From Bernardetia sp. (GTDB lineage: Bacteria; Bacteroidota; Bacteroidia; Cytophagales; Bernardetiaceae), in assembly GCF_020630935.1 (NCBI RefSeq), contig NZ_JAHDIG010000023.1, forward strand, positions 26,546 to 59,111: a stretch of 32,566 bases of DNA. The letters are read 5' to 3'. Each line of letters starts with the position of its first letter. Positions within the stretch are counted from its first letter, which is position 1. Below the pieces are notes generated by a model that was not told where the DNA came from, searched no databases, and was given only the letters and a program-made list of their open reading frames with translations. The position numbers and the translations under genes are program-made. Shown piece after piece: positions 9,214 to 10,940 of this stretch.

Positions 9214-10940
9214 CTAGCTCTCCAACTTCAAACCAAATCTTCGCATGGCTTCATTGATAAGAGGAAATTCTTTTACCAATATATCTAGTTTTTCTTGTTC
9301 GGATAATGATTTTGCTACTACTTGTTTTTTTATCTTTTGGTCTATAATCTCAAGTTTGATAAAATCATTGTCCAAATGTTTGGCTAAATAAGGATTTAAA
9401 GCTATTCGTATAGTTGAAAACTCTGAACGCAAAGCAATATTGTTGAGTAATTCTACTTTTATGATAGGCGATTTTTCTACTACGATTTTTGCATTTATCA
9501 GACTTCCTGCAAAGCCAGAAGGACTTGTTTTGAAAAACTCCTTCCATACTCTTTGTACTTTTATTGTATCAAAACTAGAATTACGGTCAGCTTGTGAAGC
9601 CATTGGTTGCTGAACTTCTTTTTCCTCTGTTTCTACTTTTGAGTTTGCTATCTCCTTCTTTTTTATTCTTACATTTGTCGTAACTTTTGGTGTTTTGCGC
9701 CAAGGAGTTTCTTCTGCATTTTTTTGTAATGCAGGATTAGAAATATTTTTCTTTGAAGTGTCCGAACTTTGTTCTTGCGAAGGGTTTTGAGATTTAGCTA
9801 GTCTTTTTTTTTTAAATCTTCTACCAGTTGAGGAATAGAAATGGCAGCCATAACATGAGAGAGCTTTAGCAAAGTCATTTCTACGTGCAAACGTTGGTTT
9901 TTACTATTTTTATAACCCAATTCACAAGCAGACGCTAGATTTAGAGCCGACATCAAAAATGAGAAGGACGAACTGGCAGCCTGTGATTTATATTTTTCCT
10001 TCACAGCATCTGAAAGCTCCAACAAAGAAATAGTAGCAGCATCTTTAGCTACTAACAAATCACGTAAATGCTCACACAAGCCCACTATAAAATTATGTCC
10101 ATCAAAACCTTTTTTCAATATTTCATCAAAAATGAGTAAGGCTTCTGTGTGATTTCTACTCAAGAAAGCATCAGTCAGTTTGAAATAATAATCATAATCC
10201 AAAACGTGCAAGTTCTCAATAGCACGAGCGTAGGTCAGCTTTCTGTCTGGCGAAAAAGTAACGAGCATATCAAAAATAGAAAGTGCATCACGCAATGCTC
10301 CATCTGCTTTTCTTCCAACAAGTTGAAGGGCTTCTTCTTCTGCTTCTACATTCTCGTTTTTTGCAATTTTTTCCAAATGACGAGCTACATCATTGGGTTG
10401 GATTCTATTAAAATCAAAAATTTGACAACGAGACAAAATAGTAGGAATAATTTTATGCTTTTCCGTTGTTGCCAAAATAAAAATAGCATACGAAGGGGGT
10501 TCTTCCAATGTTTTGAGAAAAGCATTAAAGGCTTGATTGGAAAGCATGTGAACCTCATCAATAATGTAAACCTTCTTCTTTCCAGCTTGAGGGGGGTAAC
10601 GAACCTGTTCTATAAGATTGCGAATATCTTCAACAGAGTTGTTAGAGGCAGCATCTAACTCACTAATATTCAGTGAACTACCACTGTTAAAAGACTTACA
10701 AGAACTACATTCATCACAAGGTTCGGTTTCTGCTGTAATATTCAGACAGTTGATGGTTTTTGCCAAAATACGAGAGCAAGTCGTCTTACCCACACCACGA
10801 GGACCACAGAATAAAAAAGCCTGTGCCAGTTGGTTAGAACGAATAGCATTTTTGAGTGTGTCAGTAATATGAGACTGTCCCACAACTGCATCAAAGGTAT
10901 CTGGGCGATATTTACGTGCCGAAACTACATAATTTTCCAT
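9214..10940 (-). CDS. dnaX: DNA polymerase III tau subunit (frameshifted product of dnaX)
   Basis: The full gene spans two frames. Frame 0 (10940 down to the A10 run at 9813-9804) encodes the clamp-loader ATPase. A -1 shift at that run continues AGA CTA GCT... without a stop to TAA/TAG-class stop 9214-9216, adding 196 residues for a total near 575. The tail has a linker rich in K, T, E and Q (about 65 residues) and then a 129-residue domain ending in FPLINEAMRRFGLKLES. That ending resembles the usual Bacteroidota DnaX C-terminus, where a 'NPALKKLxxxFxL' pattern is common. Tau holds polymerase cores and helicase at the replication fork in other bacteria. An ATG at 9603 lies in the tail, but an independent 129-aa gene starting there is less likely, because the frame is open all the way back to the slip site. 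Confidence 0.82.
9798..10940 (-). CDS. dnaX: DNA polymerase III gamma subunit (unshifted product of dnaX)
   Basis: Translation without shifting gives 380 residues that stop two codons after the A run (KKK-D-stop). All clamp-loader parts are present: Walker A GPRGVGKTT (46-54), a four-Cys zinc site (Cys65, 75, 78, 81), Walker B with DEVH (128-131), the SRC sensor (170-172), and domains II-III to about residue 375. The stop falls at the domain III boundary, just where E. coli gamma ends relative to tau, so the short product should be a competent clamp-loader ATPase that loads the beta clamp on DNA. The gene begins after a hairpin (11009-11043) that ends the upstream mdaB transcript. Confidence 0.9.
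   Translation of the reverse strand: MENYVVSARKYRPDTFDAVVGQSHITDTLKNAIRSNQLAQAFLFCGPRGVGKTTCSRILAKTINCLNITAETEPCDECSSCKSFNSGSSLNISELDAASNNSVEDIRNLIEQVRYPPQAGKKKVYIIDEVHMLSNQAFNAFLKTLEEPPSYAIFILATTEKHKIIPTILSRCQIFDFNRIQPNDVARHLEKIAKNENVEAEEEALQLVGRKADGALRDALSIFDMLVTFSPDRKLTYARAIENLHVLDYDYYFKLTDAFLSRNHTEALLIFDEILKKGFDGHNFIVGLCEHLRDLLVAKDAATISLLELSDAVKEKYKSQAASSSFSFLMSALNLASACELGYKNSKNQRLHVEMTLLKLSHVMAAISIPQLVEDLKKKD
9804..9813 (-). other. Slippery A10 run, probable dnaX frameshift/slippage site
   Basis: On the minus strand the run reads GAT TTA AAA AAA AAA GAC TAG: ten consecutive A residues followed one codon later by the frame-0 stop. The downstream coding frame is exactly -1. E. coli dnaX shifts -1 on A-AAA-AAG by ribosomal frameshifting; Thermus dnaX uses an A9 run with transcriptional slippage. 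No strong stimulatory hairpin is evident downstream (only a 4-bp GAAC-aaa-GTTC), which favours slippage. A homopolymer sequencing error (true A11) would give tau only. Confidence 0.7.

What the first reader, a model, noticed from the sequence alone, without database searches (positions are those of the whole stretch)
9214..10940. dnaX with an A10 slip site: gamma in frame 0, tau in the -1 frame
The clamp-loader frame stops one codon after ten consecutive A residues. From the same run, the -1 frame is open for 196 more codons and encodes a typical Bacteroidota DnaX tail. The short product ends just where gamma ends in E. coli. No strong downstream hairpin is visible, which points to transcriptional slippage as in Thermus rather than the E. 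coli signal. If real, this is an independent instance of programmed gamma/tau production in this phylum.
Basis: partly seen in the sequence, partly recalled or inferred. Interest (0 to 1): 0.7.

Follow-up and report, generated by a model that had tools for sequence, protein, structure and literature searches.

The report
Slippery A10 run in clamp-loader gene
A run of ten A's in this bacterium's dnaX gene very probably lets the RNA copy slip so that one gene makes both a short and a long clamp-loader protein; this kind of gene is already described, but here it is seen across much of the phylum, with the DNA-encoded product switching repeatedly between short and long.

Summary
On the minus strand, dnaX (10940-9798, 380 codons) ends GAT TTA AAA AAA AAA GAC TAG; the A10 is 9804-9813 and the -1 frame runs on to 9214 as a DnaX tail. 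The third frame also stops within three codons, so of run lengths 9-13 only A11 gives the 575-residue tau. Of 240 dnaX loci examined, 239 were readable; 198 carry A9-A12 (166 exactly A10) at the same place. The DNA frame encodes tau in 108 and gamma in 90 (tau in -1 in 86, +1 in 4), with 28 polarity changes on the tree, some within a genus. All 90 gamma-in-frame tails match a profile of the 108 in-frame tails. Both non-tau frames close within ten codons in 186 of 198, against 26% at control positions; no hairpin excess. This fits RNA-polymerase slippage as in Thermus better than E. coli-type ribosomal frameshifting, but no RNA or protein data were available. Gamma-in-frame dnaX with ten A's was described in 2013 (PMC3711429), so this is a new member of a known kind, not an independent invention. 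I did not find the repeated polarity flips in print (openly licensed papers only).

The parts
9798..10940 (-). dnaX frame 0: gamma form, 380 residues, ATG start, TAG stop one codon after the A run
   Evidence: NCBIfam PRK14971 and TIGR02397, Pfam DNA_pol3_delta2, DNAX_ATPase_lid, DNA_pol3_gamma3
9804..9813 (-). A10 slip site (T10 on the + strand), KKK codons at about residues 376-379
   Evidence: conserved in 198 of 239 readable loci as A9-A12
9214..9813 (-). tau tail in the -1 frame, entered within the A run; with A11 the product is 575 residues
   Evidence: the stop-to-stop open stretch is 9900-9214
9798..9800 (-). TAG, gamma stop in frame 0
9794..9796 (-). TAA closing the third (+1) frame, reached by transcripts with A9 or A12

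Best explanation
This is dnaX of a Cytophagales-type Bacteroidota with a programmed transcriptional slip site. RNA polymerase copying the A10 run makes a mixed pool of mRNAs. Faithful A10 transcripts are translated to gamma (380 residues, ending KKKD); transcripts with one extra A are read into the -1 frame and give tau (575 residues); A9 and A12 transcripts stop one or two residues later than gamma and give gamma-like products. Because both non-tau frames stop at once, the run splits expression into gamma and tau whichever of the two the DNA encodes, so the genomic frame can flip in evolution while the run stays at about ten. Shown: sequence, frames, homology of the tail, conservation of the run, flips of polarity, excess of stops in both off frames, absence of a general hairpin. 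Inferred: that slippage happens in this organism, its efficiency, and that both proteins are made and used.
For: Run conserved, frame not: 198 of 239 readable loci have A9-A12 at the gamma/tau boundary, with tau in frame 0 in 108, -1 in 86, +1 in 4 (one tau-in-frame contig stretch is in twice, L031 = L123). The tails are homologous whatever the frame: 90 of 90 gamma-in-frame tails match a profile of the 108 tau-in-frame tails, 0 of 198 wrong-frame translations do. The polarity changes 28 times on the tree (shuffled labels 55-75), with 14 independent pairs on well-supported branches. Close pairs differ: Siphonobacter L039 (A10, tau in frame) against L079 (A9, gamma in frame); L122 against L123 in the window's own family, both A10. 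Both off-tau frames close within 10 codons in 186 of 198: 97 of 108 tau-in-frame loci taken alone (controls 25%) and 89 of 90 gamma-in-frame loci (controls 27%). Third-frame stops, which -1 ribosomal shifting would not need: 97 of 108 within 10 codons against 48% in controls, and 85 of 86 against 53%. Run length is ten in both polarities (88 of 108; 78 of 90) and the run occurs in all three codon phases, while KKK triplets elsewhere in the N-terminal parts of these loci are all-AAA in only 1 of 15. No hairpin excess (median -8.8 kcal/mol at the run and in controls). Published rule that orthologues with different shift directions suggest transcriptional realignment (PMC3711429 section 10). Bacteroidia ribosomes do not use Shine-Dalgarno pairing (PMC9976891, abstract and outline only), which removes one E. 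coli dnaX stimulator.
Against: No RNA reads or protein data were available. Direction is lopsided: 86 tau(-1) against 4 tau(+1), and in tau-in-frame genes the -1 frame closes within 5 codons in 104 of 108 but the +1 frame in 65 of 108; this fits insertion-biased slippage but also -1 ribosomal shifting. Each tau(+1) case (L212, L228, L244, L248) is a single genome, one base away from tau-in-frame, so base-calling errors are possible. Four of 198 loci leave an off frame open for more than 20 codons (L047, L176, L218, L277). SD-like motifs are somewhat commoner upstream of the run (31 of 198, 16%, against 5% in controls). The genome shows only tRNA-Lys UUU (two genes), as in E. coli and unlike the two-tRNA situation that the review PMC5009743 offers as a possible reason for slippage in Thermus. 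41 of 239 loci lack a run of nine or more, including 11 of 11 Pontibacter (A7). Loci are related, so counts are not independent.
Confidence: 0.78

Rival explanations
1. Ribosomal -1 frameshifting at A_AAA_AAA inside the run: ribosomes on a faithful A10 mRNA slip back one base and make tau, as a mirror image of E. coli dnaX.
For: The needed shift is -1 here and in 86 of 90 gamma-in-frame loci; -1 stops are the closest in tau-in-frame loci (104 of 108 within 5 codons); only tRNA-Lys UUU found; SD-like motifs 16% against 5%; PMC3711429 says poly-A sites may act in transcription or translation, and PMC5009743 section 21 treats the reversed arrangement as apparent ribosomal frameshifting.
Against: A7 would do, but ten A's are kept; the +1 frame is also closed far above control; polarity flips; no hairpin at this locus or in general; no SD-like motif at this locus; SD pairing is blocked in Bacteroidia ribosomes (PMC9976891 abstract). 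It may add to slippage.
Confidence: 0.14
2. Sequencing or assembly error: the true run is A11 and dnaX is one tau frame.
For: Homopolymers are error-prone; a single base would do it.
Against: Five congeners have the same A10, stop and -1 tail; 86 loci, the window's included, have tau in -1; the stop-rich flank in both other frames is not explained by an error.
Confidence: 0.02
3. DNA-level phase variation: the run mutates by one A in some cells, switching between gamma-only and tau-only clones.
For: The frame does flip between species, in one genus with run lengths differing by a single A (L039/L079).
Against: Most tau-in-frame and gamma-in-frame genes have exactly A10 (88 of 108 and 78 of 90), so polarity is mostly not set by run length; a gamma-only clone would lack tau, which is expected to be needed for replication (general knowledge); switching within a species was not testable here.
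Confidence: 0.03
4. Two separate genes: gamma alone, and the tail translated from its own start (ATG at 9603, 129 residues), or a decayed remnant.
For: An ATG-started ORF 9603-9214 exists.
Against: The tail frame is open from the run itself, a homologous tail is fused in frame in 108 loci, and the run with its flanking stops is conserved.
Confidence: 0.03

Closest known systems
Two-ORF dnaX cluster of GeneTack (Antonov et al. 2013, PMC3711429: abstract, passages and section 10 seen; the supplementary figure with the species could not be read)
   Same: Gamma ends in frame 0, tau needs a -1 shift, ten A's in nine of 17 genes, transcriptional realignment proposed by comparison with Thermus
   Different: That set is 17 split genes of 12 genera; here the tau-in-frame orthologues with the same A10 are included, which shows polarity flips, third-frame stops and the run length held at about ten
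Thermus thermophilus dnaX (Larsen et al. 2000; not held, known through PMC5009743 section 21 and PMC1088944 passages)
   Same: A-run slip site late in dnaX that separates gamma from tau, stops nearby in both non-tau frames
   Different: A9 and tau in the DNA frame there; A10 and gamma in the DNA frame here; slippage shown there, only inferred here
Escherichia coli dnaX (through PMC5009743 and PMC3711429 passages)
   Same: One gene, gamma and tau from a shift about two thirds along, products sharing the N-terminal domains
   Different: A_AAA_AAG with SD-like stimulator and hairpin there, and the ribosomal -1 shift makes the short product; no hairpin or SD-like motif at this locus
Shigella flexneri mxiE (PMC1088944 passage)
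   Same: Slippage on a homopolymer is needed for the longer protein
   Different: Unrelated gene, run of U's in the mRNA, not the gamma/tau pair

Membership tests
dnaX clamp-loader gene, Bacteroidota type | N-terminal AAA+ and domain III of gamma/tau | tested here: met
   PRK14971 E 8.7e-213, 708.5 bits over its cut-off of 685; TIGR02397; Pfam DNA_pol3_delta2, DNAX_ATPase_lid, DNA_pol3_gamma3
dnaX clamp-loader gene, Bacteroidota type | tau C-terminal region downstream | tested here: met
   -1 frame tail matches PRK14971 positions 423-613 of 614, E 1.1e-12 (alone below the whole-protein cut-off; no Pfam match), and the profile of tau-in-frame tails, E 2.7e-16
Programmed transcriptional slippage dnaX (Thermus type / GeneTack two-ORF type) | homopolymer of nine or more A at the gamma/tau boundary, conserved in orthologues | tested here: met
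   A10; A9-A12 in 198 of 239 readable loci
Programmed transcriptional slippage dnaX (Thermus type / GeneTack two-ORF type) | stops close by in both non-tau frames | tested here: met
   TAG and TAA within three codons here; 186 of 198 loci within 10 codons
Programmed transcriptional slippage dnaX (Thermus type / GeneTack two-ORF type) | needed shift direction differs between orthologues (PMC3711429 rule) | tested here: met
   tau in 0, -1 and +1: 108, 86, 4; the +1 cases are weak singly
Programmed transcriptional slippage dnaX (Thermus type / GeneTack two-ORF type) | heterogeneous run length in mRNA and two proteins | not testable with these tools
   needs RNA reads and peptides
E. coli-type ribosomal -1 frameshift signal | downstream stem-loop | tested here: not met
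   -1.5 kcal/mol, z +1.34
E. coli-type ribosomal -1 frameshift signal | slippery heptamer | tested here: met
   A_AAA_AAA is contained in the run, and T_TTA_AAA overlaps its start
E. coli-type ribosomal -1 frameshift signal | upstream SD-like stimulator | tested here: not met
   none of eight SD-like pentamers in the 16 bases upstream of the run

The most novel reading that the evidence does not exclude
In Bacteroidota the reading frame after the dnaX run is close to a neutral character: selection holds the run at about ten A's and keeps both off frames closed, and RNA polymerase sets the gamma to tau ratio, so species flip between tau-encoding and gamma-encoding genes some dozens of times without changing the protein pair. 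A reason could be that Bacteroidia ribosomes cannot use an SD stimulator; the few lineages that lost the run (Pontibacter A7 with a stem, Arcicella-type G_GGA_AAG) would then be replacements of polymerase slippage by ribosomal frameshifting.
Probability: 0.4. Interest if true: 0.6.

Novelty: new member of a known kind. Interest (0 to 1): 0.45.

Why it matters
Gene callers are likely to split such dnaX genes or call them broken (PMC3711429 says none of its 17 was annotated as frameshifted in RefSeq), so tau can be missed. If the neutral-frame reading is right, it is a clear case in which a frameshift mutation in a replication gene has little effect because transcription, not the DNA frame, decides the product. 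It also makes testable whether SD-blind ribosomes push a phylum towards polymerase slippage, and it suggests that making gamma as well as tau is under long-term selection outside the model species.

Tried and rejected
Rejected: sequencing error (five congeners agree); chance run; general hairpin-driven frameshifting. Considered and kept as a rival: ribosomal -1 shifting. Tried without much gain: the consensus structure of the 11 Pontibacter sites gave ten pairs with no compensatory change, so the stem there is only suggestive; my own count of flips with weak branches collapsed gave 29, more than the 28 of the full tree, because it is not a true minimum, so I use 28 and the 14 supported pairs. 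In those pairs polarity showed no link with whether the run is exactly ten. The first table misread eight loci whose gene lies on the minus strand (L001, L115, L116, L118-L122); one search repeats it after orientation by tblastn. Larsen et al. 2000 and one further paper asked for by a recalled DOI are not held. Searches for earlier reports of the flips: (one found no paper); I saw listings only, apart from the papers and passages cited.

Full report
What is there. The minus strand of the window carries dnaX from 10940 to 9798, 380 codons, ending GAT TTA AAA AAA AAA GAC TAG. The ten A's are 9804-9813. The -1 frame is open from 9900 through the run to 9214. The N-terminal part is a clear gamma/tau protein (PRK14971, 708.5 bits, over its cut-off; TIGR02397; Pfam AAA+ and domain III models), and the -1 tail matches the C-terminal third of PRK14971 with E 1.1e-12 but no Pfam model. 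Translating the same gene with other run lengths gives 380 residues for A10, 575 for A11, 381 for A9, 382 for A12 and 381 for A13: both frames other than the tau frame close within three codons of the run.

More than chance. The run is the only one of nine or more A's on either strand of the window, against 13.3 matches expected after dinucleotide shuffling, so long A runs are scarce here. The genome (G000, 4,748,171 bases) has 36 distinct A10+ runs by my count of the 49 overlapping matches. Of the 21 runs read, only that in dnaX lies in two long same-strand frames.

Relatives. One scan of named genomes gave 80 loci, the best of 581; searches of whole genomes gave the family (11 genomes searched, dnaX itself in 10; G002 had only weak matches), 193 of 198 genomes in the class and 196 of 198 in the phylum, with overlap between the two draws. 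I did not read all of these: 240 loci were examined, namely 80 named, 10 of the family with the window's own, and 150 from the class and phylum searches (51 as returned, 99 fetched, picked by hand, mostly one per family plus extra gamma-in-frame cases). That choice over-represents gamma-in-frame genes, so the ratio of polarities is not a population estimate. One locus was cut off at the run and dropped (L162), and one contig stretch is present twice (L031, L123; the only identical pair).

The run. Of the 239 readable loci, 198 have A9 or longer at codon 354-416: A10 in 166, A9 in 19, A11 in 12, A12 in one. The run occurs in all three codon phases, and KKK triplets elsewhere in these N-terminal regions are AAA AAA AAA in only 1 of 15, so it is not simply a lysine-coding constraint.

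The frame. Of the 198, tau is encoded in the DNA frame in 108; in the other 90 the DNA frame encodes gamma, with tau in -1 (86) or +1 (4). That the open frame after the run is the same tail was tested: a profile of the 108 in-frame tails matches 90 of 90 gamma-in-frame tails (the window's with E 2.7e-16) and 0 of 198 wrong-frame translations of the same DNA. On a FastTree tree of residues up to about 352 (the run left out) the polarity changes 28 times, against 55-75 for shuffled labels, and 14 independent pairs rest on well-supported branches. Genera holding both kinds are Siphonobacter (A10 tau against A9 gamma), f1/g4 in the window's own family (L122 gamma, L123 tau, both A10, same phase), f43/g48, f55/g95 and f74/g145. 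The window's genus is uniform in the six genomes whose dnaX was found: gamma in frame, A10.

The stops. Both non-tau frames close within ten codons of the run in 186 of 198 loci and within five in 128; at control positions in the same tails the figures are 26% and 9%. Taking only tau-in-frame loci, where no stop is implied by the classification, it is 97 of 108 and 64 of 108 against 25% and 9%. Split by frame, tau-in-frame loci close the -1 frame within five codons in 104 of 108 and the +1 frame in 65 of 108 (controls 34% and 30%); within ten codons the +1 frame is closed in 97 of 108 (control 48%). So both frames have been closed, the -1 frame more tightly. One extra A leads to the -1 frame, and insertions predominate in the Thermus dnaX run as tested in E. 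coli (PMC6260861 passage; 'extra bases', PMC5009743 section 21), so insertion-biased slippage explains the order; but a share of -1 ribosomal shifting would give the same order. Four of 198 loci leave an off frame open for more than 20 codons.

Signals for the ribosome. Folding of 60 bases downstream shows no excess (median -8.8 kcal/mol at the run and at controls), and the window site folds worse than its shuffles (z +1.34). SD-like motifs upstream are commoner than in controls, 31 of 198 against 5%, which is against a pure slippage picture, though the window site has none; ribosomes of Bacteroidia do not recognise SD sequences (PMC9976891, abstract and outline only). The genome shows two tRNA-Lys genes, both UUU, among its 42 tRNA-model matches; three of the matches were not called by ARAGORN and the genome is a draft, so a CUU gene may be missed. 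That resembles E. coli and removes the argument from two lysine tRNAs that PMC5009743 offers for Thermus.

Mechanism. The best reading is transcriptional slippage: a mixed mRNA pool from the A10 run, gamma from A10 and most other lengths and tau from A11 (by the same arithmetic A8 or A14). The rule of Antonov et al. that orthologues needing different directions point to transcriptional realignment (PMC3711429 section 10) is met, with the caution that the four +1 cases are each single genomes one base away from tau in frame. The strongest argument is the pattern as a whole: run conserved, frame flipping, both off frames closed. No RNA or protein has been looked at, so occurrence and efficiency in this organism remain inferred.

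What is known. Thermus dnaX (A9, tau in frame, gamma by slippage) is the founding case; I know it here through PMC5009743 and PMC1088944, as Larsen et al. 2000 is not held. The gamma-in-frame type is also published: PMC3711429 reports 17 dnaX genes of 12 genera in which tau needs recoding, nine with ten A's, and proposes slippage; it names Chloroherpeton and Chlorobium species with shorter runs, while the list of the nine is in a supplement not readable here. PMC5009743 section 7 already notes that near 50% efficiency a single-base change can reverse the roles of the two products, with dnaX as the example. The window gene is thus a new member of a known kind. The extent in Bacteroidota, the number of flips and the third-frame stops in these genes I did not find in the listings, which cover only openly licensed papers.

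Exceptions. 41 of 239 loci have no run of nine or more: 17 outside the class, 11 in the class searches and 13 named. All 11 Pontibacter have A7 followed at once by stops in both other frames; 7 of 11 have AGGA within 16 bases upstream, and three of the four folded have strong stems (z -2.8 to -4.2; the fourth +0.3), without covariation. Arcicella L036 ends gamma at GGG GGA AAG TAG with a 224-codon open stretch in -1; this contains G_GGA_AAG, a heptamer of the type used by ribosomes (my recall of the class; the related G_GGA_AAC is named in PMC5009743). L060 has the same heptamer but its contig ends 59 bases after the stop. These look like switches to ribosomal frameshifting, untested.

Noticed in passing
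L005, L007-L015, L017 (Pontibacter), around 2624-2700: All 11 Pontibacter dnaX have A7 instead of A10 with stops at once in both other frames, AGGA within 16 bases upstream in 7 of 11 and, in three of four folded with shuffles, a strong downstream stem: possibly E. coli-like ribosomal frameshifting in a phylum that often keeps A10.
   Followed up: partly
L036 (Arcicella, MAG) and L060 (Cytophagales MAG), end of the gamma frame: No A run; gamma ends GGA AAG TAG, which contains G_GGA_AAG, and in L036 a long frame is open in -1. L060 ends too soon to see its tail.
   Followed up: partly
L230 (G201), stop of the gamma frame: Gamma-length frame without any homopolymer of six or more; a 206-codon tail in the -1 frame starts only after a -1 stop, so I saw no slip site that explains it. 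Could be an assembly error or a different signal.
   Followed up: partly
L268, L269, L271, L286, L287 against L278 (f74/g145, outside the class): Within one genus outside the class five dnaX loci encode gamma and one tau at the same A10, so the flipping is not limited to the class of the window.
   Followed up: partly
L332:1081-1165 (G000:C19:37180-37263): ARAGORN calls a tRNA with a four-base anticodon (gcag) in the window's genome; rather weak score (44 bits) in the tRNA model.
   Followed up: no
G000:C24:14127-14325, C63:23812-23936, C2:2051-2169: tRNA-model matches of 199, 125 and 119 bases that ARAGORN does not call as tRNA genes in the stretches read (L325, L329, L331).
   Followed up: no
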